64,000 nt of DNA from Arcobacter venerupis (GTDB lineage: Bacteria > Campylobacterota > Campylobacteria > Campylobacterales > Arcobacteraceae), in assembly GCF_013201665.1 (NCBI RefSeq), contig NZ_CP053840.1, forward strand, positions 1,116,001 to 1,180,000, in the 5' to 3' direction. Below the pieces are notes generated by a model. The model was not told where the DNA came from. It saw only the letters and a list, made by a program, of their open reading frames with translations, and searched no databases. The position numbers and the translations under genes are program-made. How positions within the stretch are numbered: position 1 is the stretch's first letter; the number at the start of each line of letters is the position of its first letter. Shown one piece after another: positions 34,085-49,586 of this stretch.

Positions 34085-34225
34085 TTGAAAGTGTACTAAA
34101 ATATAGCCAAAAAAGATTTGAATCATAATTCAAAAATGGTAAATAATAATTTATTATTTAAGCCACATTTTATTTTTATACATATAGAATTAGGTAAAAT
34201 ATTTTTTACCTAAAAGGGATAAAAT

Positions 34226-35902
34226 TTGCAAGAATTTATTTATTATAATGCTTCAGGGCTTGATTTTCCCATTAGTGAGCAGATATTTGTAACAACAAAT
34301 ATTGAAGATACTAAAAATAAAAATTTCCTCATATCTAATACATCTGAAATAAGTAGTGAAATAAGTGCACAAGAAATTGATTTTTATATAAAAAATTCAC
34401 AAGATAACTTATCAAATAAAATCAAAAATGTTTTAAAGCTCTATGAAATAGCTGCAAGTAAATATGATTTTGCTTTAGATATTCCTTATTCTGCTGAAAT
34501 CTCAAATGAAGTTTTGATAATTGTAAATTCACAAGATGAATATGATAATTTTTTATCAAATATTGAAGCAAAAGATTTTGAACTTTTCTCAATAAGTGCA
34601 GATATTTTAAAATCTATCTCTGGAAATATTGGAAATTTACAAGTTATTGTTGATGATGAAGGTGAAGAAATTACTTTAAATGTTTCTCAAATTGTTTGGT
34701 TTGATGCTAAACAAATGCAAAAAGAAAGAATAGGTATTTTTAACTCAAATTTATCAAATATTCAAGATGTGATTAAATCATTAAAACAAAATATTAACTC
34801 ATACTCTTATAAAAAATTTACAACATATGACCCAACAATTTGTCAATATAATGAAAGACGAGTTGAAATTTGTAGTAAATGTGAAGATGTTTGCCCAACC
34901 GTTGCAATTACAAAAAATGATAAAACTAAAACTTTAACATTCTCTCAAATTGATTGTTTTGGCTGTGGTGGTTGCATTTCTGTTTGTCCAAGTGGTTCTC
35001 TTGATTATGCACCTACAAATAGAGACTCTTTATTTGAAATGAGTAAATTTTATAAAGATACTCATCCTTTAATTCTTCCTTTAAAAATGAATATTCAAAA
35101 CTTAGAGCTTGAATTAAAAGATAATGTTTTACCTTTTGCAATTGAGGGTGAGAAATTTTTAGATGAATCATCACTTTTAACTTTGCTTCAACTTAGTGGT
35201 TCTCAAGTTATCTTTTATTGTGATTTCCTTTCAAAAGGTACAGCTGATTCAATTAGAATTTTAAATGATATTTATCAAAAAAGATTTGCTTTAGATGCTG
35301 TTTTAGTAGCTAGTAATGAAGAAGAATTAGCCTTAGCTTTAGAAAAAGTATCTTTTGTTGAAGACTCTTATTTTAATTTCAATCAAAGTGGTCTTAAAAA
35401 AAGAGAAGTTTTTTCTCAAAGATTACAAAAAATTGTAGGAAATGAAGATTTAGGAATAGTAACAACTGGTGAGCATATACATTATGGAACTGTAAAAGTA
35501 AATCAAGATAACTGTACTTTATGTTTATCTTGTGTGGGGGCATGTAATGTGGATGCCTTGTTTGCAAATGAGAGTGACTTTACTTTAAGAGTAAATCCAT
35601 CACTTTGTACTTCATGTGGTTATTGTGAAATTTCATGTCCAGAAATTGATTGTTTAACAATCCAAAGAGATGAAATTCAACTACAACCTATGTGGTTTAA
35701 AGAAAATATATTAGCAAAAGATAAACTTTTTGCCTGTGTTGAGTGTGGAAAAGAGTTTGCAACAACTAAAGCTATTGAAAAAATAGCTTCTATTATGGCT
35801 CCAATTTTTGCAAAATCAAGTGAAACTAAAAAAAGAACTTTGTATTGCTGTGAAGATTGTAAAGCCAAATTGATGATAAAACAAGGATTATTAGATGCAT
35901 AA
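34226..35902 (+). CDS. Multi-[4Fe-4S] ferredoxin-like protein of the formate dehydrogenase locus
   Basis: 558 residues, cytoplasmic (no signal peptide). It starts with TTG at 34226, with AAGGG about eight bases upstream. Cys clusters: C-x2-C-x3-CP near 215 (CSKCEDVCP), C-x2-C-x2-C-x3-CP near 248 (CFGCGGCISVCP), a third near 432 (CTLCLSCVGAC), a fourth near 461 (CTSCGYCEISCP), and two C-x2-C pairs near the C-terminus (CVECGKEF, CCEDCKAK). Related proteins lead FDH operons in Campylobacterota. It may pass electrons to or from FDH or a quinone partner. It overlaps the TorD-like gene by eight bases. Confidence 0.85.
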   Translation: MQEFIYYNASGLDFPISEQIFVTTNIEDTKNKNFLISNTSEISSEISAQEIDFYIKNSQDNLSNKIKNVLKLYEIAASKYDFALDIPYSAEISNEVLIIVNSQDEYDNFLSNIEAKDFELFSISADILKSISGNIGNLQVIVDDEGEEITLNVSQIVWFDAKQMQKERIGIFNSNLSNIQDVIKSLKQNINSYSYKKFTTYDPTICQYNERRVEICSKCEDVCPTVAITKNDKTKTLTFSQIDCFGCGGCISVCPSGSLDYAPTNRDSLFEMSKFYKDTHPLILPLKMNIQNLELELKDNVLPFAIEGEKFLDESSLLTLLQLSGSQVIFYCDFLSKGTADSIRILNDIYQKRFALDAVLVASNEEELALALEKVSFVEDSYFNFNQSGLKKREVFSQRLQKIVGNEDLGIVTTGEHIHYGTVKVNQDNCTLCLSCVGACNVDALFANESDFTLRVNPSLCTSCGYCEISCPEIDCLTIQRDEIQLQPMWFKENILAKDKLFACVECGKEFATTKAIEKIASIMAPIFAKSSETKKRTLYCCEDCKAKLMIKQGLLDA

Positions 35903-36506
35903 ATTAGAAATTGATAAAGCAAGACTGTTTTTATACAATATTTTATCTTTATTGTTTGTAGAAGAGTATGTAAAAAACAATGAAAAACAAATTATTAATG
36001 ATTTAGAAATTCTATCTAATAACTCTTTTGATGAAGATGTATCAGTTGCTGCAAAAAATATTTTAAATTATTTAGAAGATAAAGGTTTTGATAAATTATA
36101 TATTGATTATCAAGAACTTTTTATTGTTCCTTTTGGAACTTTTGTTTCTTTGAGTGCTTCTTGGTATCACGAACAACGAGAAGGTGGGTTTATGCAGTTA
36201 AAAGTAAAAGATGTTTTAGCAAAAACAAAAATCAGAAAAGATGAAAAAACTTTTACTGCACCAGAAGACCATTATGGATTTATTTTTACTTTAAGTGCAT
36301 ATTTAATTGAGCAACAAATCAAAAATGAGATTAAAGAAGATTTACAAAAAGAGTTATTTCAAATTGTAATTAATCCTTATTGTGAAGAGTTATTTTACAA
36401 ATTAATAGCCTCTCCCAGTGCAATTTATTCACAAGTTGGAGTTATTTTAGCAAATATTTGTAATTTTGAAAGAGCATATTTAGATATTCAAAAATTAAAA
36501 AAATAA
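35895..36506 (+). CDS. TorD/DmsD-family chaperone for formate dehydrogenase
   Basis: 203 residues, helical, with the family core near 80-130 (DYQELFIVPFGTFVSLSASWY; then PEDHYGFIFTLSAYLIEQQI, the E-P-x-D-H-like motif). TorD-type proteins bind Tat signal peptides and help load the molybdenum cofactor. It is coupled to the ferredoxin-like gene and precedes two genes with Tat signals, so FdhA is the likely client. Confidence 0.88.
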   Translation: MHKLEIDKARLFLYNILSLLFVEEYVKNNEKQIINDLEILSNNSFDEDVSVAAKNILNYLEDKGFDKLYIDYQELFIVPFGTFVSLSASWYHEQREGGFMQLKVKDVLAKTKIRKDEKTFTAPEDHYGFIFTLSAYLIEQQIKNEIKEDLQKELFQIVINPYCEELFYKLIASPSAIYSQVGVILANICNFERAYLDIQKLKK

Positions 36507-36588
36507 GAATTTTGTAAGAAAGCTGCTCTAAAAATTTAAAGGAATTTTTAAAGGGGCTTTTTACCCAAATTTAAAAGTGGAGTTAATT

Positions 36589-36813
36589 ATGGCTAATGAG
36601 TTAAACGAAAGACGTAACTTTATTAAAAGAGCCGGAATAGCAGCTTCTGTATTGGCAGGCTCTGTTGTTGCAACTGCTGCAACAAGTGAGAGTAAAGATA
36701 GAGGAGCTGGAAGTATAATCGGTAATGGTGTTGTAGTAGGCACATCAGTTAAAAAAGAAATTTTATATAAAAAAACAGCAGCTTGGGAAGAGTTTTATAG
36801 CGCTGCTAAATAA
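36589..36813 (+). CDS. Small Tat-targeted FDH-region protein (formate_TAT family)
   Basis: 74 residues with a twin-arginine signal (ERRNFIKRAGIAASVLAGSVV) and a short mature part ending AAWEEFYSAAK. It matches the known 'formate dehydrogenase region TAT target' family always found just before fdhA. ATG 36589 is chosen because GGAG (36579-36582) is six bases upstream; the frame is open to a GTG at 36577. The role is unknown. It might be a small periplasmic subunit or an export partner of FdhA. Confidence 0.88.
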   Translation: MANELNERRNFIKRAGIAASVLAGSVVATAATSESKDRGAGSIIGNGVVVGTSVKKEILYKKTAAWEEFYSAAK

Positions 36814-36832
36814 AAAATAATAGGAGGATTTA

Positions 36833-39634
36833 ATGGAAGTATTAAAAAGCTTTGGAAGAAGAAGTTTTCTTAAAATGGCTTCACTTGCAACTGCTGTAAC
36901 AGCAACTTCTGCCTTTGCAAACACTGATAAAGTATTAAGAGATGCAACTGAAGAAGAGGTAAAAAACCCATATCCAGGTTCAAAATTGATTAAAACTATT
37001 TGTATGCATTGTTCAGTTGGTTGTGGAGTAGTTGCAGAAGTTCATAATGGTGTATGGGTAAGACAAGAAGTAGCTCAAGATCACCCAATTAGTAGAGGTG
37101 GACACTGTTGTAAAGGTGCAGATATGATCGATAAGGTTAGATCTACAAACAGATTGCAATATCCAATAGAAAAAGTAGCTGGAAAATGGAATAGAGTATC
37201 ATGGGATGATGCTATGACAAAGATTTCTAATAAACTATTAGAGTTAAGAGAAAAATTTGGTCCAGATTCAGTTATGTTTTTAGGTTCAGCAAAAGTAAGT
37301 AATGAACAAGCATTTTATATTAGAAAATTTGTTTCAATGTTTGGAACAAATAATATAGATCACGTTGCTAGAATTTGTCATAGTCCAACAGTTGCCGGAG
37401 CTGCAAATACCTTTGGATATGGTGGAATGACAAATCATTTAGGTGATATGCATAACTCTAAAGCTATTTTAATAATGGGCGCAAATCCAGCAGAAGCTCA
37501 TCCAATTGCGATGCAACATATACTAAAAGCAAAAGAACAAAATGGTGCAAAAGTTATAGTTATTGATCCAAGATATACTAAAACAGCAGTGAAATCTGAC
37601 CTTTATTGTAGAATTAGAACAGGAACAGATATTGCTTTTTTATATGGTCTAATTAGGCTAATTCGTGATAATAACTGGTATAACAAAGAGTATTTAGATA
37701 ACAGAGTTTATGGAATGGAAGAGATATTCAAAGAGTGTGAAGAGTACACTCCTGAAAAAGTTGCAGATATTACAGGTTGTAAGCCTGAAGAGTTAATTCA
37801 AGTTGCTACAACATTTGCAAATTCAACTCCAGGAGCTTTGATTTGGAATCAAGGTTGGACTCACCATACTATTGGTTCGTCAAATACGCGATTAGGAGCT
37901 ATTTTACAATTATTACTTGGAAATGTTGGAGTATCAGGTGGTGGATGTAATGTTTTAAGAGGACATGATAATGTTCAAGGTTCAACTGATATGGGTTGTC
38001 TTGCTGATACATTACCTGGATATTATGGTTTAGCTGAAGGTTCATGGAAATACTTTGCAAAACAGTGGAAAGTAGATTATGAGTGGTTAAAAGGAAGATT
38101 TAAATCAAAAGAGTTAATGGAAGCAAAAGGTAATACTTTATCTTTATGGAAACATAGTGTTCTTGATGAATCAAATGCCAAATATAATGGTGGAACACCT
38201 ATAAAAGCTCTTATTTGTATAGGAAATGGAGTATCAACTGTTACCGAAACTCATAAATCAAAAGAGGCTTTAGACAAGCTGGATTTAGTTGTATTTATTG
38301 ATCCTTATGTAAATGACTCTGCTGTTATTACAACAAGAAATGATAATTTATTTTTATTACCAGCTGCTTCTCAAGTTGAGAATTCTGGTTCTGTTGTAAA
38401 TACAGGAAGAAGTACACAATGGAGAACTCAAGTTGTTAAGCCACTTTTTGAATCAAGAAAAGATCAAGAAATTTTATTTGATTTTGCAAAAAGATTAGGG
38501 TTTTATAATGAATTTGTTGCAGGTATGGGAAAAGGTGATAACTTCACTTGGCCAGAAGATGCAACAAATGAAATTGCAAGAACTTTAAAAGCTCATGGTT
38601 TGACAGGTGTTACTGCTGAAAGATTAAAAAAACATCAAGAGAATTGGCACTTATTTAACCCTTCAAACTTAAAAGGAAAAGGGATTACTGAAAAAGAGTA
38701 TTATGGATTACCATGGCCTTGTTGGAGCGAAACACACCCAGGAAGTCCAGTTTTATTTAATACAAGTTTACCTGTATCTCAAGGTGGTATGGGATTTAGA
38801 ACGAGATTTGGAACACAGAGAAATGGAGTTAGTTTACTTGCAAATGAAGGAAGTGCACCAAAAGGTTCAAGAATCAAAGGTGGATATGATGAAATTACAG
38901 CTAAAAACATTGAAGAATTAGCAGGAATTACTTTAACTGCTGAAGAAAAAGCTCTTGTTGAAGGTACAAATTGGAAAACTGATACTAGTGGAATTTTAGT
39001 AAAATATGCACTTGATGCTGGACTTACTCCTTTTGGAAATGCAAAAGCAAGAACTATAGTTTGGGAGTTTATTGATAATGTACCAAAACATAGAGAACCT
39101 TTACACTCTCCTAGAACGGATTTAGTTGCAAAATATCCAGCAACTAAAGATATACCAAATCACTTTAGAATTGATGTTAGATATGAGAGTGAACAATTAA
39201 AAGAAGATTGGGCAAAAAATTATCCTGTAAATATGATTTCAGGAAGAGTAGTTGAACACATGGGAACAGGAACAGAGACAAGAGCATCTCATTACCTTTC
39301 AGAGTTAAATCCAGAAATGTTTGGAGAGTTAAATCCTATATTAGCTGGAAGATTAGGGCTAAATGATGGTGATATGATGTGGCTTTATGGAACAGGTGGT
39401 GGAAAAATCAAAATTAAATGTAAAGTTAGTTTAAGAGTAGATGACAAATCAGTATTCTTACCTCAAAACTTCTCTGGATGGTGGAGTGGTGAAGATTTAA
39501 CAGATAGATATCCAAGTGGAACTGCACCATATGCAATGGGTGAAAATTCAAACCAAGTTACAAGTTATGGATTTGATCAACAAACAGCTTGTCCAGAAGT
39601 AAACTGTTCACTTGTAAGAATTGAAAGAGCATAG
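36833..39634 (+). CDS. fdhA: Formate dehydrogenase catalytic subunit (Mo/W-bis-MGD), Cys variant
   Basis: Periplasmic oxidoreductase of 933 residues that oxidises formate to CO2. Tat signal GRRSFLKM is at 8-15. The N-terminal [4Fe-4S] site uses C57, C60, C64 and C92. The active-site residue is C182, encoded by TGT at 37376-37378 in ARICHSPT, where E. coli FdnG and several relatives have selenocysteine. The molybdopterin domains run to the C-terminus (MGTGTETRASHYL; FSGWWSGEDL). SD AGGAGG is strong. It lies 19 bases after the small Tat gene and ten before fdhB. Confidence 0.96.
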   Translation: MEVLKSFGRRSFLKMASLATAVTATSAFANTDKVLRDATEEEVKNPYPGSKLIKTICMHCSVGCGVVAEVHNGVWVRQEVAQDHPISRGGHCCKGADMIDKVRSTNRLQYPIEKVAGKWNRVSWDDAMTKISNKLLELREKFGPDSVMFLGSAKVSNEQAFYIRKFVSMFGTNNIDHVARICHSPTVAGAANTFGYGGMTNHLGDMHNSKAILIMGANPAEAHPIAMQHILKAKEQNGAKVIVIDPRYTKTAVKSDLYCRIRTGTDIAFLYGLIRLIRDNNWYNKEYLDNRVYGMEEIFKECEEYTPEKVADITGCKPEELIQVATTFANSTPGALIWNQGWTHHTIGSSNTRLGAILQLLLGNVGVSGGGCNVLRGHDNVQGSTDMGCLADTLPGYYGLAEGSWKYFAKQWKVDYEWLKGRFKSKELMEAKGNTLSLWKHSVLDESNAKYNGGTPIKALICIGNGVSTVTETHKSKEALDKLDLVVFIDPYVNDSAVITTRNDNLFLLPAASQVENSGSVVNTGRSTQWRTQVVKPLFESRKDQEILFDFAKRLGFYNEFVAGMGKGDNFTWPEDATNEIARTLKAHGLTGVTAERLKKHQENWHLFNPSNLKGKGITEKEYYGLPWPCWSETHPGSPVLFNTSLPVSQGGMGFRTRFGTQRNGVSLLANEGSAPKGSRIKGGYDEITAKNIEELAGITLTAEEKALVEGTNWKTDTSGILVKYALDAGLTPFGNAKARTIVWEFIDNVPKHREPLHSPRTDLVAKYPATKDIPNHFRIDVRYESEQLKEDWAKNYPVNMISGRVVEHMGTGTETRASHYLSELNPEMFGELNPILAGRLGLNDGDMMWLYGTGGGKIKIKCKVSLRVDDKSVFLPQNFSGWWSGEDLTDRYPSGTAPYAMGENSNQVTSYGFDQQTACPEVNCSLVRIERA

Positions 39635-39643
39635 GAGAGTACC

Positions 39644-40237
39644 ATGAATAATAATGTAGATTTTTCAAGAATGAAATTTTATTGTGATGAAAACCTTTGT
39701 ATTGATTGTAATGGTTGTGTTGTAGCTTGTAAAGAAGCTCATGAAGTTCCAGTTGGAGTTAATAGAAGAAAAGTAATTACAGTAAATGAAGGAATAGTAG
39801 GGAAAGAGATTTCTCTTTCTATGGCTTGTATGCATTGTGCTGACGCACCTTGCCAAAAAGTTTGCCCAACAGATTGTTTTTATATTAGAACAGATGGTAT
39901 TGTTTTACATGATAAAGATAAATGCATTGGTTGTGGATATTGTTTATTTGCTTGTCCTTTTGGTGCTCCACAATTTCCAAAAAATGGTGCATTTGGAACA
40001 AAAGGGAAAATGGATAAATGTACAATGTGTGCAGGAGGTCCAGAAGAGACTAATTCTCCTGAAGAGTTCCACAAATATGGACAAAATAGAATTAGTGAAG
40101 GTAAAGTACCAATGTGTGCGTCTATGTGCTCAACTAAAGCTTTACTTGTAGGTGATGCCAATGAAGTTGCTTTAATCAAAACATATAGAGCAGCATCACA
40201 AGGTAAAGGTATCTCTACTGAATCTTATGGATGGTAG
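39644..40237 (+). CDS. fdhB: Formate dehydrogenase iron-sulfur subunit
   Basis: Electron-transfer subunit of 197 residues with Cys motifs for four [4Fe-4S] clusters: CIDCNGCVVAC (20-30), CMHCADAPCQKVCP (about 66-79), CIGCGYCLFACP (about 93-104) and CTMC plus CASMC near the C-terminus. Unlike E. coli FdnH it has no C-terminal membrane helix, so it sits between FdhA and the cytochrome b. It exits with FdhA through Tat as a complex, by family analogy. Confidence 0.94.
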   Translation: MNNNVDFSRMKFYCDENLCIDCNGCVVACKEAHEVPVGVNRRKVITVNEGIVGKEISLSMACMHCADAPCQKVCPTDCFYIRTDGIVLHDKDKCIGCGYCLFACPFGAPQFPKNGAFGTKGKMDKCTMCAGGPEETNSPEEFHKYGQNRISEGKVPMCASMCSTKALLVGDANEVALIKTYRAASQGKGISTESYGW

Positions 40238-40245
40238 GAAATAAT

Positions 40246-41199
40246 ATGGAAAATAGCTCATTTTTTTATAGAAATAAAGCGTATATTTTCACTCTTCTTG
40301 GACTATCATTAGTAGGTTTTGTATTTATTAAATTTATGATGATTATGGATTGGGAATATTTATTTAAATATACTATTCATGTAATTACAAGTGGGAGCGT
40401 GGATGGAGCAATAACTCCTCCAACTTCAACTTACAAAGCTATGGTAGATGCAGCTTTTGGCTCAAACTATGAGGCAATTGCTCCTGAAATAATAAGAGCC
40501 AGTAATGAAAGACAACTATACATTTGGTGGGTTTTTGTTGGTGAAATCGCAATATTTTGTGTAATGTATACACTTAATGGAAGAAAAAGCGCAATTATTA
40601 CAAATCCAAATGACCAAGTTCAAGTATTTTCTGCATTTCACAGAGCAGTTATTTGGTTAAATGTAATTATTATAATTACTTTGATAATTACTGGATTTAA
40701 TATTACTTGGAGTCTTAGAAGTGGAGGTGGATATATTCCTTTTATCCTAAGAGGTACACATGAAATAACAGGTCTTATTTGGTTTCCTATTTGGTTACTA
40801 ATGACTATTATTGCATTTAAAGATGTAAAATTATTTTCAAAAAACAGTTTGTTAGGAAAAATAATTCTACCTGGAAAATATAAACCAATGAAAAGAGTTA
40901 TTTTTATTGCCTTTGTATTAATGGGTGCTGGTTTACTAGCAAGTGGATTTATAATATGGTATCTTCATCCAGATGCTTATACAAATGCTCATTTAATTCA
41001 ATTTAAAAGAGCTTTACTTTATGTACATTTTGGTTCTAGTGTATTGATTATGTTTTTCTTAATGGATTTTGTATATTCAGTTTTAATTGCTGTAAAAGGT
41101 AACTTAAAAGGTTTAATTACAGGTAAATATCCAAGGGAACATTTAGAACAATTAGCTCCTGATATATTAGCTGATATTGAAAAAGGAAAAGTGGCATGA
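40246..41199 (+). CDS. fdhC: Formate dehydrogenase cytochrome b subunit
   Basis: Inner-membrane quinone-reducing subunit of 317 residues with four transmembrane helices and His residues for two b haems (HRAVIWLNV, RGTHEITGLIW, YVHFGSSVLI). A periplasmic segment of about 75 residues after TM1 (PPTSTYKAMVDAAFGSNYEA) is typical of Campylobacterota FdhC. I start at ATG 40246 with AGGAA six bases upstream instead of the in-frame ATG at 40231, which overlaps fdhB. It overlaps fdhD by four bases. Confidence 0.93.
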   Translation: MENSSFFYRNKAYIFTLLGLSLVGFVFIKFMMIMDWEYLFKYTIHVITSGSVDGAITPPTSTYKAMVDAAFGSNYEAIAPEIIRASNERQLYIWWVFVGEIAIFCVMYTLNGRKSAIITNPNDQVQVFSAFHRAVIWLNVIIIITLIITGFNITWSLRSGGGYIPFILRGTHEITGLIWFPIWLLMTIIAFKDVKLFSKNSLLGKIILPGKYKPMKRVIFIAFVLMGAGLLASGFIIWYLHPDAYTNAHLIQFKRALLYVHFGSSVLIMFFLMDFVYSVLIAVKGNLKGLITGKYPREHLEQLAPDILADIEKGKVA

Positions 41200-42026
41200 C
41201 AAAGCCTATGAGAAGTGAAAACTTCTCCCTTTCTTATACTAATTCAAATAAATATATTAAAGAGATAATTATTGAAAAAGTTGATGAGAATGGGATTGAA
41301 AGCCTTGAAGATTATGTTATAAAAGAAGATAAAGTTGAATTTTATTTAAATGGAAAAAAACTTTTATCAGTTATGAGTATAGCTCAATATCAAGATGCAC
41401 ATATTGTTGGATTTTTGTTAAGTGAAGCAGTAATAAAAGATTTTTCAGACATAAAAACGATAACTATAAGTAACGATGGATTAAAAGTTGAGGTTTTTGC
41501 AAATGTTAGCCCTGAGGGTTATGAAAATCTTTTTAAAGAAAAAACATTAACTTCTGGTTGTTGCGTAGGAGTTACAGGAAATGCAGAAAAAGTATTTGAT
41601 TGTGCATTTGTAAGCACAGATTATAGTGTTCATGCAAAAGATATTTTAGCAAATATGAGAGAATTTAATAGACACTCAGACCTTTTTGATAATACAGGAT
41701 GTGTTCATAAAGCTGAACTTATTTTAGAAGATGGTACAATTTTCGTCGCTGAAGATATAGGGCGACATAATGCAATTGATAAGGTTATTGGACTTGCAAG
41801 TATGAATAAAAAAGATGTTAAAAAATCAGTTTTATATGCAACTGGACGATTATCTATGGAAATGGTTGTGAAATGTGTAATGCATAAAATCCCAATCGTT
41901 GTTTCAAAAGCAGCCGTTACTTTTCAAGGTGTAAAATCAGCAAACGAACATGGAATTACACTTGTAGGATTTGCAAGGGGTAATAAAATGAACGTATATA
42001 CTCACTCAGGAAGAATAAATGTCTAA
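41196..42026 (+). CDS. fdhD: FdhD sulfurtransferase for formate dehydrogenase
   Basis: Cytoplasmic protein of 276 residues that moves sulfur from a cysteine desulfurase to the molybdenum cofactor of FDH. Family stretches are LSVMSIAQYQDAHIVGFLLSEAVI, FDNTGCVHKAEL, AEDIGRHNAIDKVIG and ATGRLSMEMV. The usual C-x-x-C loop is replaced by adjacent cysteines C122-C123 (TSGCCVGVTG). It is translationally coupled to fdhC and overlaps the next gene by eight bases. A desulfurase-like gene follows two positions downstream. Confidence 0.93.
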   Translation: MTKPMRSENFSLSYTNSNKYIKEIIIEKVDENGIESLEDYVIKEDKVEFYLNGKKLLSVMSIAQYQDAHIVGFLLSEAVIKDFSDIKTITISNDGLKVEVFANVSPEGYENLFKEKTLTSGCCVGVTGNAEKVFDCAFVSTDYSVHAKDILANMREFNRHSDLFDNTGCVHKAELILEDGTIFVAEDIGRHNAIDKVIGLASMNKKDVKKSVLYATGRLSMEMVVKCVMHKIPIVVSKAAVTFQGVKSANEHGITLVGFARGNKMNVYTHSGRINV

Positions 42027-42441
42027 AAATGAAGATAGCGTCGGTGTAGAGTTGGATAATATCCAAAAAGAATTTTTATTGACAAACTTAGATGAAGATG
42101 GAAAATTATCTTGTTTAAAAGCTTTTAAAGTTGCAAGATTAATAGGAAGAAAACCCATTGAAATGAATTCAATTATCCAAAGCATGGGGCTTGAAATCAC
42201 AAATTGTGAACTTGGTGTTTTTGGAAAACTAAAATTTAAAGACCCAAATATTCAAGTTTATAATAGACTAAAACAGAACTATATGGGACATGAAACTTTA
42301 GAATGTAGAGTTTTATGGGATGAAGCAAAACGTTCAAATCTCAAAACAGTTGGTTCAACTGTAAAAAATAGTGATATAAAAGTAAGCCATTGTCAGCTTG
42401 GTTGTTTTAGAAGCAGAAATGGAAAAAAAGAGCTTGGTTAA
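42019..42441 (+). CDS. FDH-associated protein with two C-x-L-G-x-F motifs, unknown
   Basis: 140-residue soluble protein I cannot assign. The N-terminal half is helical (DGKLSCLKAFKVARLIGRKPIEM). The motifs NCELGVFGKLKF (about 64-75) and HCQLGCFRSRNG (about 126-137) look like an internal repeat, each preceded by a hydrophobic strand (GLEIT, DIKVS). It overlaps fdhD by eight bases and the desulfurase-like gene by about 23, so it belongs to the FDH maturation unit. A sulfur- or cofactor-handling role or a ModE-like regulatory role are both possible and unproven. Confidence 0.75.
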   Translation: MSKNEDSVGVELDNIQKEFLLTNLDEDGKLSCLKAFKVARLIGRKPIEMNSIIQSMGLEITNCELGVFGKLKFKDPNIQVYNRLKQNYMGHETLECRVLWDEAKRSNLKTVGSTVKNSDIKVSHCQLGCFRSRNGKKELG

Positions 42442-43414
42442 ACTAAATGTTTTACAATACAATCCAATAAAATTAGATTTATCAAATGAAAACTATTCAA
42501 TAGATAGTTTAGTTACAAACACTGATTTTGAAAACTTATGTAAAAACTATAAACAGAAGTTTGCCTATTCCAAATTAAAAACTTTTTCTTTTTCAAAAGA
42601 GGGATTTTTAGGACTTTTTTTAGAGTTAAAAGGAAATATTGCCATAAGTGTTGGTGAATGTGAAGCTTTAATAAATGCTGCAAAATTATATGAAAACTTA
42701 GGTTTTGAAATATTATGGATAAGTTTAAATAAAGATGGAAAAGTAAATCTAAAGAAAATAGAAAATGAAAATATAGATTTTCTTTTTTTATCTTCTTATG
42801 TTATGGATACCTTTGTAATAACTTCTTTACAAGAAGCCAAAAAACTAACAAATGCAAAAATCATCTCAAATGCAAGTGCAAATTTTTCAATATTAAGTGA
42901 TGCTGTTTATTTTGATAATTATAAACTAACAGGTTATAACCTCTCAGGAGTTTTACTTTTTGAAGATGAAAACTTATTTGAACTTTTAAATATAGGATTT
43001 ATAGATACTTTAGCTGTAAAATACTGCTTTGAAGCCCTAGAAAATCAAAAGTTTAACTATGAAATGAAAGATAAATTTTTACAAAAACTAAAAGAAAAGT
43101 TCAAAGATGATTTATATTTTTTCGTAAATCCAGCTGATACCTTACCTTACTCACTTCATATCGCACTAAAAGGCATAAAAGCCAGAGAACTAATAAGAAC
43201 ACTAGCTTTAAATAAAATCTTCCTAACAAATGGTGAGGGGTGTTCTTTGGGACTTTCAAAACCCTCACGAATTATCCAAAATATGGGATATGATGATCAA
43301 ACAAGCAGAAACTCAATACAACTAGCTTTTAACCAAACTTTTAGTGAGGAAGAAATAGAAAAGTTAGTGAATGCTATTTATTTGAAATATAAACAGATAA
43401 AGTCGTTTTCGTAA
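42419..43414 (+). CDS. Divergent cysteine desulfurase-like PLP enzyme (FdhD partner candidate)
   Basis: 331 residues from ATG 42419 (an in-frame TTG lies at 42398). It is fold-type I class V aminotransferase-like. The PLP lysine is likely K169 in YKLTGYNLSGVLLF. The catalytic Cys is likely C275 in NGEGCSLGLSKPS, and the typical NifS ending with MG, then NSIQLAFNQTFSEEEIEKLV, follows. The N-terminal domain is shortened relative to NifS/IscS (about 390-400 residues). Its place after fdhD suggests it supplies persulfide sulfur for FDH maturation, a job IscS does in E. coli. Confidence 0.82.
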   Translation: MEKKSLVKLNVLQYNPIKLDLSNENYSIDSLVTNTDFENLCKNYKQKFAYSKLKTFSFSKEGFLGLFLELKGNIAISVGECEALINAAKLYENLGFEILWISLNKDGKVNLKKIENENIDFLFLSSYVMDTFVITSLQEAKKLTNAKIISNASANFSILSDAVYFDNYKLTGYNLSGVLLFEDENLFELLNIGFIDTLAVKYCFEALENQKFNYEMKDKFLQKLKEKFKDDLYFFVNPADTLPYSLHIALKGIKARELIRTLALNKIFLTNGEGCSLGLSKPSRIIQNMGYDDQTSRNSIQLAFNQTFSEEEIEKLVNAIYLKYKQIKSFS

Positions 43415-43479
43415 GTTTTTATTTCATAATTTCACTTTTTTTAGCTATCTTGTTTACATAAAATAAAAAAGGAATAAAA

Positions 43480-43719
43480 ATGAAAAAAATTACATTATAT
43501 TTATTGGTTGCCACTTCGACACTATTTGCTTCAAATGGTTTTGAGGGTTGTAAAGAGTTAAAATTAAGTGAATCAAAAAGTATGATCTCTTGTCCTAGTG
43601 GAGATTATGAGGTTACTTATGAAACAAAAAGGGAACAAAGGGATTTAGTTGCTGCTCCAACTGTGGTAAAAGTTGGCGAAGCTCCTAAACAAATCATTCA
43701 ATACATCACAAATAAATAA
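43480..43719 (+). CDS. Small exported protein, unknown
   Basis: 79 residues with a signal peptide (KKITLYLLVATSTLFASNG) and a mature part of about 60 residues containing two cysteines (FEGCKEL, ISCPSGDY) that may form a disulfide. SD AAGGA precedes the ATG. It is conserved-looking but unassigned. It may be transcribed alone, as a hairpin terminator overlaps its stop codon. Confidence 0.75.
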   Translation: MKKITLYLLVATSTLFASNGFEGCKELKLSESKSMISCPSGDYEVTYETKREQRDLVAAPTVVKVGEAPKQIIQYITNK

Positions 43720-43741
43720 GCCAAAAAGGCTTGTTTATTTT
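43718..43741 (+). terminator. Terminator after the small exported protein
   Basis: AAGCC (43718-43722), loop AAAAA, GGCTT (43728-43732), then GTTTATTTT. Confidence 0.75.
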
Positions 43742-43849
43742 CTGCTTTTAAATAAAATATTACAATTTGACATATTATAAATAGAAACTTTTTTAATAAA
43801 GTATACTTCCTCATTCAATTATAAAAATCCTATAAAATAAAGTTTTTAA

Positions 43850-45121
43850 ATGTTCCTACACCTAGACCTTGATTGTTTTTTTGTTTCTGCTCATAGAACT
43901 ATCGATGATAGTTTATTTCATATTCCAGTTGCGGTTGGAGGAAGAAGTAATCTTAATATTTTTTCTTCAAAAAAAGAAATTAGAAAAATATCTTCAAACA
44001 GTGGAGCATTTGTGAGTTCCATTCTTACAAATGAGGGAATGAAGAGTTTCAAAGAGTATTTTGTAGATGAAAATGGGAAAATAAGAGGAATAATAACAAC
44101 ATCATCTTATGAAGCCAGAGCTTTTGGAGTAAAAACTGCAATGAGTGTAAATGAAGCTTTGACTTTGTGTCCACACTTAAAAATGCTACCGCCAAACTAT
44201 CCTTTGTATCACGATTTATCAACAAAATTAAAAGAGCTTTTAATAAAAGAGATTCCTTTGGTTGAACAGTATTCAATAGATGAATTTTTTGGAGATGTAT
44301 CTGGATATATTGAAGAAGATGAGATAGTACAATTTGCTTATTATTTGAAAAAAAAGATATTTGATGAATTAAAATTGCCTATATCAATAGGAATATCAAA
44401 TACAAAATATCTTTCAAAACTAATAACAGAATACGCAAAACCAGATGGTGTAAAGTATGTAAGTGTTGATAATATTGGGAATTTTATAAAGGATATTCCA
44501 ATCAAAGAGTTCCCTGGAATTGGAAAAGCATTTCAAGAAAAACTCAAAGGTTATGGAATAAAAACACTAGGTGATATTAAAAAAAATCAAAAGCTTTTTT
44601 ATTCATGGCAAAAATCAGGAATTGATTTATACAATCGTGTTTGTGGAATACGAGATAATAAATTAACCTTTGAGAGAGAAAAAAAATCAATAGGAATAGG
44701 GCGAACCTTTGATGTTATTTTTGATAGAGAGGAACTAAAAAGAAGAGTAATGATTCTTTGTAGATATTTGTGTTTTCTAGTAAAAAAAGCAAATGTGAAT
44801 CCCCTAACTTACGCCATACAAATAAGATATGAATATAGAAGTAAATCAAAAAACTATATAAATGTAAATAGGATTTTTAATGAAATGGATTTCAAAACTG
44901 AAATGGTAAAACTCTTTGAAGAGACAGACAACCATAAAACGCACGGAGTAATACAATTAAATATCACCGTTTTAAATTTCGCTAAAGTAAATGAATACAC
45001 CTATAATCTTTTTGAATATGAAACAGACCTAAAAAAGAGAGCCTTAACAAATCAGATGCAAAAATTAAGAAGTAAATATGGCATTGATATTGTCAAGAGT
45101 GCGTTTGAGATAAAAAAATAA
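43850..45121 (+). CDS. dinB: Y-family DNA polymerase (DinB/Pol IV-like) with an insertion
   Basis: Translesion polymerase of 423 residues. Catalytic acids: D6 (HLDLDCFF) and D144-E145 (YSIDEFFGDVSGY). The fingers motif SYEARAFGVKTAMS is at 86-99, the helix-hairpin-helix PGIGKAFQEKLKGYGI at about 222-237, and a little-finger domain at about 280-415. Between VAVGGRS and GIITTSSYEAR there are about 47 extra residues (33-79) compared with E. coli DinB. No beta-clamp motif is clear at the C-terminus. It appears monocistronic with a weak ribosome site. Confidence 0.9.
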   Translation: MFLHLDLDCFFVSAHRTIDDSLFHIPVAVGGRSNLNIFSSKKEIRKISSNSGAFVSSILTNEGMKSFKEYFVDENGKIRGIITTSSYEARAFGVKTAMSVNEALTLCPHLKMLPPNYPLYHDLSTKLKELLIKEIPLVEQYSIDEFFGDVSGYIEEDEIVQFAYYLKKKIFDELKLPISIGISNTKYLSKLITEYAKPDGVKYVSVDNIGNFIKDIPIKEFPGIGKAFQEKLKGYGIKTLGDIKKNQKLFYSWQKSGIDLYNRVCGIRDNKLTFEREKKSIGIGRTFDVIFDREELKRRVMILCRYLCFLVKKANVNPLTYAIQIRYEYRSKSKNYINVNRIFNEMDFKTEMVKLFEETDNHKTHGVIQLNITVLNFAKVNEYTYNLFEYETDLKKRALTNQMQKLRSKYGIDIVKSAFEIKK

Positions 45122-45200: not shown

Positions 45201-47177
45201 ATGTTAACTGAATTAACTAAAAACTTAAATATTTTAAAAGATTTAAGAAGTCAAATAAATCAAGATATAAAGTGTAGAGTAAATCTTTTAAACTATAAAA
45301 ATAATCAAACATTTGGTGTTAGTGATGGGAATTATAGTGTTTATACTTTAAGTGGTGAAAGTAAAATAAACTCTCCTTATGTATTTGATTTAGTTTTTAT
45401 AAGTGATGAATTTATATATGTTGAAGATATAGTGGATACGGATGTAAATATCATATTAGAAGATAATATAGATTTAAGCGTAAATAAAAAAATCTTTGGA
45501 AAAATATTTGAGGCTAGTGAACATAGTATTGTTGCAAAAAAGTACCTTTATAGTATAAAAGTAGTATCAGTTTTAGCTTATTTAAATATGACAAATAAAT
45601 ATGAAATTTTTCATGATAAAAAAGTAAGCGATGTAATATTAACAATTATAAATAGATATAAAGAACTCTTAAATTTAAATCTTGAAATCAAAATAGATTT
45701 ATTAAATGAACCAAGAAGAGAATACTTAACTCAATATAATCAAAGTGATTTAGAGTTTATTCAAATACTTTGTGAAGAAGAGGGCTATAGTTTAATAATA
45801 GATTACTCATCTAATAATCCATATAATATTGTTCTTTGTGAATTAAACGAACATTCAATAGTAAAAACATACTCTTCAACTTGCAGTTTTAATCAAAAAA
45901 AAGAGTTTAAAACAAGCCATTTACTCCAAGATTTTTATGATAAAGATAATCCCTCAACAGAATATAAAAGTTCTTATGGAATGAACATAAATTCAAGTAT
46001 AAAAGATAATGATAGTACAAAACAATTAAGAACGGATTTGATAAAAGAGAAGTTTAGAGATAAGTTAAATCTATTTAATGAGAGTTATTATAAAGATTTA
46101 AATAGATATATAAAAATCGATTCCCAAAGAGAATATGTCCAATCTAATACAATATTTGGTAAATCACAAGAATTAAATATTCAAGATGCCTTGTGTATAA
46201 GTTTAGAAGATGAAAAAGCAAATAAAAAAGTTGATTCTATTATCCTAAAAGTGAAATATCAAGGATATTTTCCAAATGCTTTGGATGAATATAAACAAGA
46301 TAATAATGAAAATAAAAAAATGCAATATGAAGTAGAGTTTGAAGCTATTCCCAAAGATATAAGTTATAAACCTCCAATTAGTATAAAAAAAACAAAAATA
46401 AATTCAATATTAACCGCAATTGTTTCAAATACAAATTCTAATACAAAAGATTATGCAAACACAATAGATGTTGATGATAAAGGAAGAGTAAAAGTATTGT
46501 TTAGTTTTGAAAGAAACAAAACAACTTCTTGTTATTTACGAGTATCAACCTTTTTTGCAGGAAATAAATATGGAAGTCAATTTTTACCAAGAGTAAATAG
46601 TGAAGTAATAGTAAGCTTTGTAAATGGTGATCCAGATTATCCAATAATAATTGGAAACTTACATAATGGTGAAAATAAAAATCCCTATGATTTACCACAG
46701 AATAAAACTAAGTCATTTATCAAAACTTATTCGATTCCTCAATATGAGAATAAATTAGGATACAACGAAATACTTTTTGAAGATAAAAAAGCAAATGAAG
46801 AACTAAATCTTAGAGCTCAAAAAGATATGAATATTTTAGTGTTAAATGATAAATCAACTCATGTATTAAATAACTCAAAAACAATAATAGATAATAAAAA
46901 AGAAGAGATAGTAGAATCAAACTCAAAACAAACAATAAATAAAAACTATACCCAAAGAATAAACCAAAACCAAATAAATACAGTGTCAAAGGAAAAGCTA
47001 ACAACTGTAAAAGGTAATTATGAAATCACTGTAAAAAAAGATTTAAATACTGTTGTTAAAAATGATATTAAAACAATTGTAGAAAATAATTATAAGTTAA
47101 AAGTAAATGGTAAAAAAACAACCTATGTAGAAAATGATGCAAAAGAGAAATATTTAATAAACCTTTTTCTCAAGTAG
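45201..47177 (+). CDS. vgrG: VgrG type VI secretion spike protein, 3' frameshifted
   Basis: 658 residues in this frame. The gp27-like hub domain (about 1-370) includes REYLTQYNQSDLEFIQILCEEEGYSL, a VgrG hallmark. A gp5-like OB domain follows at about 415-490 (GRVKVLFSFERNKTTSCYLRVSTFFAG; NGDPDYPIIIGNLHNGEN), then a beta-helix spike with repeating K/N/T units. The frame ends in YLINLFLK at 47177, while typical VgrG sequence continues in another frame to 47449. A single missing base near 47153-47156 would explain this. Other T6SS core genes are outside the window. Confidence 0.9.
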   Translation: MLTELTKNLNILKDLRSQINQDIKCRVNLLNYKNNQTFGVSDGNYSVYTLSGESKINSPYVFDLVFISDEFIYVEDIVDTDVNIILEDNIDLSVNKKIFGKIFEASEHSIVAKKYLYSIKVVSVLAYLNMTNKYEIFHDKKVSDVILTIINRYKELLNLNLEIKIDLLNEPRREYLTQYNQSDLEFIQILCEEEGYSLIIDYSSNNPYNIVLCELNEHSIVKTYSSTCSFNQKKEFKTSHLLQDFYDKDNPSTEYKSSYGMNINSSIKDNDSTKQLRTDLIKEKFRDKLNLFNESYYKDLNRYIKIDSQREYVQSNTIFGKSQELNIQDALCISLEDEKANKKVDSIILKVKYQGYFPNALDEYKQDNNENKKMQYEVEFEAIPKDISYKPPISIKKTKINSILTAIVSNTNSNTKDYANTIDVDDKGRVKVLFSFERNKTTSCYLRVSTFFAGNKYGSQFLPRVNSEVIVSFVNGDPDYPIIIGNLHNGENKNPYDLPQNKTKSFIKTYSIPQYENKLGYNEILFEDKKANEELNLRAQKDMNILVLNDKSTHVLNNSKTIIDNKKEEIVESNSKQTINKNYTQRINQNQINTVSKEKLTTVKGNYEITVKKDLNTVVKNDIKTIVENNYKLKVNGKKTTYVENDAKEKYLINLFLK

Positions 47178-47449
47178 GTAAAAGTTTTAGACTTGATGTT
47201 CAAGAAAATTACCATCTAAAAAGTAATCATATAAAACATAATGCCTCAAATATAGAATTTGTTTCTAATAAAGCAATATCAATAAAATGTGGTGCAAATG
47301 TAATAACAGTAGATCAAAGTGGTATTCATCTAAAAGCTGCAAATATAGATACAACTTCTCCTAATGGTGGGGTTAAGGCTAAAGATGTAGGAAAAACAAT
47401 AATTAATATTATTGATAAAATAAAAACAGATGTAATTATCTCTAAATAA
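47156..47449 (+). pseudogene. vgrG: Frameshifted 3' end of vgrG
   Basis: Ninety-seven codons in a second frame, with no start of their own, encode the missing VgrG C-terminus: NKPFSQVGKSFRLDVQENYH, then KAISIKCGANVITVDQSG and HLKAANIDTTSPNGG, ending in TAA at 47447-47449. The last two stretches are standard VgrG tail sequence. With one extra base in the T-rich run near 47153 the protein would be about 750 residues and intact. Either a recent frameshift, a phase-variable tract, or a sequencing error explains it. Confidence 0.8.
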
Positions 47450-47459
47450 GGAAAAAGAA

Positions 47460-47906
47460 TTGGCATTAAATAATCAAAGAACATATATTCCAAAGTTTTC
47501 ATATCCATTTGAAGAAAATAGTTATGAAAAATATATGCAAGAGATAAGTAGTCTAGCAAAAGGTAATTATTTGTTTACAGAAAATGGTTTTTGGCATGGA
47601 GGAATACACTTTGAGGGAGCAATGTTAAGTAGATTAAAATCTCATAAGGGCATAAAATGTATAGCAGATGGAGAAATCGTAGCATATAGAATAAATGATG
47701 AATACATAAATAATACAAGAGGATTGTACTCAAGTGGATTTTTTCTTGTAAGACATTTCCTAGAATATCCTGCAAATAATAGATTGACATTTTTTTCTTT
47801 ATATATGCATACTGCAAAAAAAGAAGATTACTTTGTTAAAGTAATAGGTGAAAAACGATTTCTAAGAAAAGGCTATGAGAAAAGCTCAATTTCACCAATA
47901 ATATGA
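47460..47906 (+). CDS. N-terminal part of a VgrG-linked effector (M23-like fold), cut by TGA
   Basis: 148 residues from TTG 47460, with AAGGA just upstream overlapping the vgrG-frame stop. Features of a LytM/M23-type beta fold: GFWHGGIHFEG (H46, H50), IKCIADGEIVAYR and LYMHT. The same reading frame resumes right after TGA 47904-47906, and the fold continues there, so this is the first part of a roughly 708-residue protein and not a gene on its own. The truncated product lacks the second metal-binding strand and should be inactive. Confidence 0.75.
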   Translation: MALNNQRTYIPKFSYPFEENSYEKYMQEISSLAKGNYLFTENGFWHGGIHFEGAMLSRLKSHKGIKCIADGEIVAYRINDEYINNTRGLYSSGFFLVRHFLEYPANNRLTFFSLYMHTAKKEDYFVKVIGEKRFLRKGYEKSSISPII

Positions 47907-49586
47907 AATGAACTAGAAATTGATACAAATATAATAGTAGATGGGAATTGGAAAAAGAATAGAGCAAAAGTATTGTATGTGAAAAATCAAGAAATAGACT
48001 TGTCTCAAAATTTAACAATTCATAACTCAAATGTAAATAAAGAAGAAGAAATCAGATATTTTGAAAATATAGGTGAAATACTAAAAAGAGAAAAAATAAA
48101 TGAGATAGATATTCTAGAAATACCAATAGAGATAAAAGCAGGGGAAATAATAGGCTTAATAGGTGAATATAATATAAATAATGAAGAAAATGAAAAATGC
48201 TTGCACTTAGAAGTAATAGCAGATGATAATCTAAAAAGATACGTAGAGAATATAACAGAAGAAGAGAATGTGCCACAAAACTTAAAATGGGCGAGAATAA
48301 TAGATGTAGAATCAAAAGATAAAATATCAATATTTGAAAATCTAGAAGTAATGTATGATAATAATATAAAAGAAGATATCCAAATAAATGATATGTATAA
48401 AGAGTTGTTTGATTTGGTGGATAAAGATAATAATGGAAAATTAGAACCTTATGAGATAAAACAAGCAGTAATAAATAAAGATATAAAAGAAGTAAGCTCA
48501 AAATATATAGTAAAACATTCAAGTGAATGGGATGAGAAAATAAATATGGTCGATGAGATACAGAAGATAATAAAAAAGATAGATAATAATAGATTTGAGA
48601 ATAAAGAAGAGTATATCAAAATATTAGAAATAGAGAAAAAAAGGATAAAAAATCTAAGTTTGTTTGAAAAGTGTAAAGAAATAGAAGGATTTCCCCAAAG
48701 TGATGAAGTATTTCATATAAATGCAATTGGTTTGGTAAAAGCATTTAAAAAGTGTAAAATAACTAAAGAGATGTTAATTGCGATGGGATGTATACAAGCA
48801 AGTAATGATCAAGCTTTACTTGATGCATTAAATAAATATTGTGAACAATATGAGATAAACACTTGCCTAAGAGTTGCGCACTTTTTAGCTCAAGCTGCAC
48901 ATGAAAGTGGTGGGTTTACAAAATTTGAAGAGGGAATATATTATCAAAAAATTGCAGCAAGAGACCAAAGTGAATATAGAGTATACGAAAAAGAATTAGA
49001 AAAACTATATCCTAAAGATGAGGATGCCAATAGAAATAATATTTATTTTCCAAATAATCAAAAATATGCAGTGCAACCTGAGCTCTTCAATTTAGTTTAT
49101 GCTAATGAAAATGGTAATGGAGATGTAAATTCAGGAGATGGATATACATTTAGAGGTAGAGGAGTTATTCAAATAACAGGAAGAGATAATTACAAAAACT
49201 ACACCTTAATGCATAATAGTAAAAATCCAAATGATATAAAAGATTTTGAGAATGATGAAACACATAGAGATGAGATAAAAACAAATATGGAATATGCAGT
49301 TGAATCAGCTTGCTGGTATTGGACAACGCAAGGGAAAACAAGAGAGTATAGAAATATTAATACTCTTGCAGATTTAGGAACTACACAAGATGTACTTTAT
49401 GCAGTAAGTTTAAGTATAAATGGATGGTATATTAAAACATCTTCTGAATATTTAGAACTATCTCAGAATCAGAAAAATATTTATAATTATTTGAATTCAA
49501 CCTTTAATATATGGATGAGAGAATCAGAAGGACATTCTGATAGAACAATAAAATTTAATACAATAAAAAATTACTTAGGATTATAA
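47907..49586 (+). CDS. C-terminal part of the VgrG-linked effector: M23-like end, EF-hand loop, GH19-like lytic domain
   Basis: Open from just after the TGA; the first usable start in frame is TTG 47973, without a good ribosome site. Order of parts: the end of the M23-like fold (KAGEIIGLIGEY, then CLHLEV), an EF-hand calcium loop DKDNNGKLEPYE at 48420-48455, a helical linker, then a glycoside-hydrolase-19/lysozyme-like domain from about 48720. That domain has AHFLAQAAHESGGF (likely catalytic Glu codon at 48903) and GYTFRGRGVIQITGRDNY. It should cut peptidoglycan or a related glycan. Adjacent to vgrG, it is a probable T6SS cargo effector. Confidence 0.82.
   Translation, partial: NELEIDTNIIVDGNWKKNRAKVLYVKNQEIDLSQNLTIHNSNVNKEEEIRYFENIGEILKREKINEIDILEIPIEIKAGEIIGLIGEYNINNEENEKCLHLEVIADDNLKRYVENITEEENVPQNLKWARIIDVESKDKISIFENLEVMYDNNIKEDIQINDMYKELFDLVDKDNNGKLEPYEIKQAVINKDIKEVSSKYIVKHSSEWDEKINMVDEIQKIIKKIDNNRFENKEEYIKILEIEKKRIKNLSLFEKCKEIEGFPQSDEVFHINAIGLVKAFKKCKITKEMLIAMGCIQASNDQALLDALNKYCEQYEINTCLRVAHFLAQAAHESGGFTKFEEGIYYQKIAARDQSEYRVYEKELEKLYPKDEDANRNNIYFPNNQKYAVQPELFNLVYANENGNGDVNSGDGYTFRGRGVIQITGRDNYKNYTLMHNSKNPNDIKDFENDETHRDEIKTNMEYAVESACWYWTTQGKTREYRNINTLADLGTTQDVLYAVSLSINGWYIKTSSEYLELSQNQKNIYNYLNSTFNIWMRESEGHSDRTIKFNTIKNYLGL

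What the first reader, a model, noticed from the sequence alone, without database searches (positions are those of the whole stretch)
41196..43414. FdhD with its own divergent cysteine desulfurase and a repeat-motif protein
Downstream of fdhD two overlapping genes encode a 140-residue protein with duplicated C-x-L-G-x-F motifs and a shortened NifS-like enzyme retaining the Lys and active-site Cys. Known: FdhD receives sulfur from IscS in E. coli. Inferred: here a dedicated three-protein sulfur relay matures FDH. The middle protein is undescribed as far as I can tell.
Basis: partly seen in the sequence, partly recalled or inferred. Interest (0 to 1): 0.6.

Follow-up and report, generated by a model that had tools for sequence, protein, structure and literature searches.

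The report
Formate dehydrogenase helper gene trio
Behind the genes for the enzyme formate dehydrogenase sit three helper genes: a known cofactor helper (FdhD), a worn-down relative of sulfur-supplying enzymes that always travels with it, and a small four-cysteine protein that turns out to be the front half of a Campylobacter 'repressor' known, without explanation, to be needed for formate dehydrogenase activity.

Summary
In detail: fdhD (41196-42026), a 140-residue two-repeat protein (42019-42441) and a short NifS-like gene (start 42419 or, more likely, TTG 42434; end 43414) overlap head to tail. The 140-residue protein matches no Pfam or NCBIfam family, but it is the free-standing form of the N-terminal domain of the Campylobacter ModE-like regulator Cj1507c: published Cj1507c primers match exactly, 200 bp apart, over that domain of a fused homologue beside fdhD. 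Four cysteines, two per repeat, are invariant. Across Campylobacterota it is fused to a ModE-type HTH, split from it, or, as here, present with no such HTH in the genome. In C. jejuni, Cj1507c deletion abolishes FDH activity (PMC11237541), unexplained so far. The NifS-like protein occurs in 34/34 FdhD-positive Arcobacteraceae and has the desulfurase fold, Lys and Cys, but the PLP-stacking His and pyridine Asp are replaced and two loops deleted; the genome has canonical SufS and NifS. A dedicated desulfurase is therefore doubtful; an FdhD-docking persulfide carrier fits better. The three-protein relay is not supported as stated: sister operons lack the 140-residue protein entirely. Most likely it is an optional FDH-assembly or status-sensing module.

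The parts
36833..39634 (+). fdhA, catalytic subunit, Cys form: active-site codon TGT at 37376 (HVARICHSP) where same-genus operons have TGA (Sec)
39644..40237 (+). fdhB, iron-sulfur subunit
40231..41199 (+). fdhC, cytochrome b subunit
41196..42026 (+). fdhD, FDH sulfurtransferase/chaperone; loop motif TSGCCVG (CC instead of CxxC)
42019..42441 (+). 140-aa four-cysteine two-repeat protein; free-standing form of the N-terminal domain of the Campylobacter ModE-like regulator Cj1507c
42088..42234 (+). repeat 1 (residues 24-72): C32 and C63 (NCELGVFG)
42280..42420 (+). repeat 2 (residues 88-134): C96 and C125 (HCQLGCF)
42434..43414 (+). NifS-like protein, desulfurase fold, PLP-site His and Asp lost; Lys codon 42923, Cys codon 43241, Asn (for Asp) codon 42869; alternative start ATG 42419
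35895..36506 (+). TorD/DmsD-like chaperone gene of the same operon (probable counterpart of C. jejuni FdhM)
34226..35902 (+). ferredoxin-type gene conserved at the head of these fdh operons

Best explanation
The locus is a formate dehydrogenase operon carrying its own cofactor-maturation tail. FdhD binds and sulfurates the bis-MGD cofactor (established for the family). The NifS-like protein is an FdhD-dedicated, catalytically degenerate relative of cysteine desulfurases; most likely it docks on FdhD and passes on persulfide sulfur, made by one of the cell's canonical desulfurases, through its invariant mobile-loop Cys (inferred). The 140-aa protein is the detached N-terminal domain of the Cj1507c-type ModE-like regulator (shown): two Cys-pair repeats that probably bind a metal or cluster or carry thiol/persulfide, and that read or assist the state of FdhD or the FDH cofactor (inferred). 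In most Campylobacterota this module is coupled to a ModE-type HTH that controls Mo/W uptake; here, with no such HTH in the genome, it most likely acts at the protein level, as an optional FDH-assembly factor (inferred).
For: Identity of the 140-aa protein: fused homologues of 240-280 aa are this domain plus a ModE-type HTH (TIGR00637, E 1e-20); both published Cj1507c primers (PMC7011364) match exactly, 200 bp apart, at the 5' end of such a gene next to fdhD in a Campylobacter genome; C. jejuni fdhD and Cj1507c share an operon (PMC3541246). Function link: Cj1507c and fdhD deletions each abolish FDH activity, both complementable (PMC11237541). Independence from the HTH: same-genus window-type genomes with the domain have no dedicated HTH, only canonical ModE; one-clade origin of the HTH-less copies is rejected although their FdhD form one clade, so the domain entered or was exchanged into fdhD-nifS operons without its HTH (AU p 0.0013). 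Four Cys invariant in 64/64, and in 12/12 sequences not found by motif pattern. dN/dS about 0.15-0.2. NifS-like: 34/34 linkage to FdhD; IscS/Nfs1 fold, TM 0.75-0.81; Lys 29/30, Cys in all readable sequences, His and Asp lost; canonical SufS/NifS elsewhere in the genome. Not a selenium function here: no SelA, Cys-FdhA.
Against: Seven same-genus genomes, plus G292 and G358, have the operon type with fdhD and the NifS-like gene but no such domain, so it is not generally required. One complete genome (G014) keeps an intact copy with no FdhD. One operon (G401) has a decayed copy. A second paralogue in several genera sits far from fdh, beside Mla/RND/HAD genes. The C. jejuni phenotype comes from the whole protein, so it could be regulatory. 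No binding, metal content or sulfur transfer has been measured; the domain has no similar solved structure.
Confidence: 0.5

Rival explanations
1. The 140-aa protein is purely the sensory half of a Mo/W (or redox) regulator. Without its own HTH it either works with another DNA-binding partner, such as the canonical ModE, or is a relic on the way to loss.
For: Fused to, or encoded beside, a ModE-type HTH in most genomes; operons with the HTH often also carry moeA and the tungstate transporter gene tupA; C. jejuni Cj1507c represses Mo and W transport operons (PMC7011364); absent or decayed in some HTH-less operons; fused form kept in Campylobacter genomes that lack FdhD.
Against: Purifying selection in HTH-less copies (dN/dS about 0.15-0.2); HTH-less copies are not one decaying lineage; fdhD overlap kept; C. 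jejuni modE mutants lack FDH activity, which its authors judged to go beyond repression (PMC11237541).
Confidence: 0.33
2. One reading: a dedicated three-protein sulfur relay, NifS-like desulfurase to 140-aa carrier to FdhD.
For: Gene order and overlaps; invariant cysteines in both small proteins; tight FdhD linkage of the NifS-like gene; a divergent fdhD-adjacent homologue (L179) still aligns a His and an Asp at the lost PLP positions, so the ancestor may have been an active enzyme.
Against: PLP-site His and Asp lost in all 30 close orthologues, two loops deleted; NCBIfam desulfurase scores far below cut-offs (46 against 643 bits); the middle protein is missing from sister operons that keep both others.
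Confidence: 0.12
3. The trio serves selenium delivery for selenocysteine FDH rather than sulfuration of the cofactor.
For: Most relatives of the operon carry a TGA codon in fdhA, and yedF lies near many fused loci.
Against: The window's complete genome has no SelA and its FdhA has Cys, yet all three genes are kept.
Confidence: 0.05

Closest known systems
Cj1507c (ModE-like regulator) of Campylobacter jejuni
   Same: Its N-terminal half is this domain; encoded directly downstream of fdhD; required for FDH activity (PMC11237541)
   Different: Cj1507c carries a C-terminal ModE-type HTH; the window protein has none, and the genome's only ModE-type HTH found is in a canonical ModE
IscS/NifS cysteine desulfurases (E. 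coli IscS-FdhD pair; R. capsulatus NifS4-XdhC pair)
   Same: Fold, PLP lysine position, mobile-loop cysteine, and partnership with a cofactor-sulfurating chaperone
   Different: About 330 aa instead of about 400; stacking His to Ser/Cys/Thr, pyridine Asp to Asn, ATES-type and GGxxxGxRxGT loops deleted; dedicated to the fdhD operon
FdhD (E. coli FdhD, R. capsulatus FdsC)
   Same: Full-length member above the curated cut-off
   Different: CC in the loop motif (TSGCCVG) instead of CxxC; FdhD of operons with the HTH and of fused operons has a single Cys there. CC forms are known (PMC6239281)
FdhE
   Same: An accessory protein with paired cysteine motifs tied to periplasmic FDH operons (PMC10609526)
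   Different: No sequence similarity; FdhE is absent above its cut-off from all 397 Campylobacterota genomes searched. Analogy only

Membership tests
Cysteine desulfurase (IscS/NifS) | Fold type I PLP enzyme with desulfurase architecture | tested here: met
   AF2 model pLDDT 90; IscS, Nfs1 and NifS best PDB matches, E to 5e-20, TM to 0.81
Cysteine desulfurase (IscS/NifS) | PLP-binding Lys and catalytic mobile-loop Cys | tested here: met
   Lys 29/30 (Arg once), Cys 29/29 readable
Cysteine desulfurase (IscS/NifS) | His stacking on PLP | tested here: not met
   Ser 22, Cys 4, Thr 4 of 30 at the aligned position
Cysteine desulfurase (IscS/NifS) | Asp to the pyridine nitrogen | tested here: not met
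   Asn 30/30 at the aligned strand end
Cysteine desulfurase (IscS/NifS) | ATES-type loop and GGxxxGxRxGT segment | tested here: not met
   both absent in the alignment with the genome's own NifS
Cysteine desulfurase (IscS/NifS) | Curated family score | tested here: not met
   best 46 bits against 643 for IscS; Pfam Aminotran_5 21.3 against 21.5
Cysteine desulfurase (IscS/NifS) | Releases sulfur from L-cysteine | not testable with these tools
   needs an enzyme assay
FdhD | Curated equivalog score | tested here: met
   NF001943 325.7 against 269 bits
FdhD | CxxC loop (E. coli type; not universal in the family, PMC6239281) | tested here: not met
   TSGCCVG
ModE-like regulator of Cj1507c type | N-terminal two-repeat four-Cys domain encoded next to fdhD | tested here: met
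ModE-like regulator of Cj1507c type | C-terminal ModE-type HTH | tested here: not met
   absent from the protein; in the genome found only in canonical ModE
Canonical ModE | Mop/TOBE molybdate-binding domains | tested here: not met
   no Pfam or NCBIfam match of the 140-aa protein
Known sulfur carriers (TusA, SufE, rhodanese) | Pfam domain | tested here: not met
   none among the families matched by 64 members at E 0.1

The most novel reading that the evidence does not exclude
The Campylobacterota 'ModE' of the Cj1507c type is two proteins in one: its N-terminal two-repeat four-cysteine domain is a new class of FDH maturation factor (cofactor, persulfide or metal handling with FdhD), which explains why deleting a 'repressor' abolishes FDH activity; the window shows that factor standing alone.
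Probability: 0.35. Interest if true: 0.75.

Novelty: new variant of a known kind. Interest (0 to 1): 0.52.

Why it matters
A 2024 study found that the C. jejuni repressor ModE is essential for FDH activity and could not say why. Natural genomes here separate that protein into its two halves and keep only the N-terminal half beside fdhD, which tells experimenters which half to test and with which partner. The operon also shows a desulfurase-fold protein that has lost PLP-site residues yet stays tied to FdhD, a lead on how sulfur reaches FdhD when the partner is not IscS.

Tried and rejected
Known-family searches with the 140-aa protein (Pfam, NCBIfam, PDB by sequence and by fold) found nothing convincing; scattered weak Pfam hits across 64 homologues disagree with each other. 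Weak fold hits to tandem homeodomains (E 0.6 or worse) were rejected. A selenium role was rejected for this genome (no SelA, Cys-FdhA). An obligate role in every FDH operon was rejected (operons without it). A known RNA element in 34000-44000: none in Rfam. A relation to FdhE was considered as analogy only. The simple reading that the HTH was lost once from a single lineage of window-type operons was rejected by the tree test. Homologues outside Campylobacterota were not found (the 80 best loci shown are all of that phylum except one record labelled Pseudomonadaceae that groups with Aliarcobacter, probably a binning error), but the scan was pattern-based and kept 80 of 110, so absence elsewhere is not shown.

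Full report
What is there. The window lies in a complete 3.2-Mb Campylobacterota genome whose nearest relatives are Arcobacteraceae. Its fdh operon runs ferredoxin-type gene, TorD-like chaperone gene, fdhA, fdhB, fdhC, fdhD, a 140-aa gene and a NifS-like gene. fdhD and the 140-aa gene overlap by 8 bp; the same overlap occurs in 49 of 60 measured loci across the phylum. The NifS-like gene most likely starts at TTG 42434, which fits the orthologues (LVKLNVLQY...) and again gives an 8-bp overlap.

The middle protein. It has no Pfam or NCBIfam match and no PDB relative by sequence or fold. It is an internal duplication of about 47 residues: repeat-against-repeat profile alignment gives E 2.4e-14 and score 61, with the best of 30 shuffled controls at 13.8. 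Each repeat has one Cys at the start of a helix and one in C-x-L-G-x-F; the four are invariant in 64 of 64 homologues. Those homologues were fetched by patterns containing the second motif, so that part is biased; but the first Cys of each repeat lies outside the patterns, and 12 sequences found by similarity alone show all four. The AF2 model is fairly confident (pLDDT 86).

What it is related to. In other families of the phylum the domain is fused to a helix-turn-helix; the HTH is of ModE type (TIGR00637, E to 1e-20, below the curated cut-off). In most Arcobacteraceae operons seen here the two are adjacent separate genes (order fdhD, this gene, HTH gene, NifS-like gene, moeA, tupA). The fused gene is Cj1507c, the ModE-like regulator of C. 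jejuni: both published Cj1507c primers (PMC7011364) match without mismatch, 200 bp apart, over the 5' end of the fused gene downstream of fdhD in one Campylobacter genome, as expected for the 200-bp product in that paper; and the C. jejuni operon is fdhD-Cj1507c (PMC3541246). Literature: C. jejuni ModE represses Mo and W transport and lacks the usual metal-binding domain (PMC7011364). Deleting modE or fdhD abolishes FDH activity, both complementable, and the authors infer a role of ModE in FDH biogenesis beyond repression (PMC11237541).

The window's special state. Here the domain stands alone. A search with the dedicated HTH finds in this genome only a canonical ModE (HTH plus two C-terminal repeats), beside what reads as a molybdate-binding protein gene and a nitrogenase component gene (the last names are my reading of the ORFs). 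In 60 relatives, genomes with the split or fused arrangement show the dedicated HTH at E below 1e-33, while window-type genomes (G000, G004, G008, G011, G021, G022, G027, G029, G030) show only canonical-ModE-sized hits around 1e-6 to 1e-9. FdhD proteins of window type form one clade, with a CC loop motif where the others have a single Cys; its outer members lack the 140-aa gene. The 140-aa proteins of the same operons are scattered among those from HTH-bearing operons, and forcing them into one clade is rejected (log-likelihood drop 77.8, AU p 0.0013). So the domain entered, or was exchanged into, fdhD-nifS-like operons without its HTH, probably more than once. The tree rests on about 140 columns, and gain and loss cannot be told apart with certainty. 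dN/dS between window-type copies is about 0.15-0.2.

Limits on its importance. Seven same-genus genomes (G003, G006, G007, G009, G013, G024, G028; operons read in three of them) and two from another family (G292, G358) have FdhD and the NifS-like gene and no copy of the domain; in the operons read, fdhD is followed directly by the NifS-like gene. G014 has an intact copy but no FdhD. G401 has a decayed one. In 397 genomes, 123 have both FdhD and the domain, 21 the domain only, 69 FdhD only (Fisher p 1e-30; genomes are related, so this is descriptive). Most domain-only genomes are Campylobacter-group genomes with the fused form; in the one read (G138, L073) it lies beside an FDH operon.

The NifS-like protein. 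It has the desulfurase fold (best PDB matches Nfs1 and IscS, TM to 0.81). Against the genome's own NifS it keeps the PLP Lys (29/30) and the mobile-loop Cys (all readable) in an almost invariant N-G-E-G-C-S-L-G context. But the PLP-stacking His is Ser, Cys or Thr, the pyridine Asp is Asn in 30/30, and the ATES-type and GGxxxGxRxGT loops are gone. The role of those residues is established knowledge of IscS/NifS; the positions rest on sequence alignment and the model's strand ends, not on a solved structure. A distant fdhD-adjacent homologue (L179) aligns His and Asp at those places, suggesting descent from a more normal enzyme. The high-scoring subfamily (over 400 bits) occurs in 38 of 397 genomes; 37 have FdhD, and the exception is a contig edge. 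All 34 FdhD-positive Arcobacteraceae have it. The genome also has SufS-like and NifS-type desulfurases. I infer an FdhD-dedicated partner that relays persulfide, not a normal desulfurase; this is untested.

Not selenium. Close relatives carry TGA at the FdhA active site; the window has TGT at the same codon, and its complete genome has no SelA. The helper genes outlived, or never needed, the Sec machinery.

Mechanism and confidence. Shown: identity of the domain, its arrangements, the residue losses, the linkages. Known from papers: FdhD function (PMC6239281, PMC10609526) and the modE phenotype (PMC11237541). Inferred: that the domain itself carries the FDH-biogenesis role (about 0.35-0.5), that the NifS-like protein is a non-canonical carrier (about 0.45), and that the four cysteines bind a metal or carry sulfur. 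The main rival is a pure sensor role of the domain (0.33).

Noticed in passing
window 37376-37378 and L092-L096, L190: FdhA active site is TGT (Cys) here but TGA (Sec) in the same operon of close relatives; one relative (G401, L190) has tandem interrupted (Sec-type) and uninterrupted fdhA copies. The window genome lacks SelA.
   Followed up: partly
L073 (G138), L146 and about 20 genomes listed: Campylobacter-group genomes with the fused domain-HTH gene but no FdhD detected; in those read, it sits beside Sec-type fdhA and fdhB.
   Followed up: partly
L079, L080, L109, L113-L116, L119, L120, L125, L126, L130-L134: A second paralogue of the 140-aa domain at a fixed locus beside MlaA/MlaC/RND-transporter and HAD-hydrolase genes, far from fdh, with the cysteine motifs kept.
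   Followed up: partly
L179 (G366): A divergent NifS-like protein next to fdhD that aligns His and Asp at the PLP positions lost in the main subfamily; a candidate active FdhD-dedicated desulfurase.
   Followed up: partly
L061 (G014): Intact 140-aa gene (86% identical) in a complete genome without FdhD or SelA, at the syntenic place near the DNA polymerase IV-like gene.
   Followed up: partly
window 36589-36813: Small Tat-signal-like ORF between the TorD-like gene and fdhA; no NCBIfam match at E 0.001.
   Followed up: no
window 45201-49586: VgrG-like gene followed by peptidase-like and glycoside-hydrolase-like ORFs (by eye), resembling a type VI secretion cargo island.
   Followed up: no
phylum-wide: FdhE (PF04216) is not found above its cut-off in any of 397 Campylobacterota genomes searched, although many have FDH operons.
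   Followed up: partly
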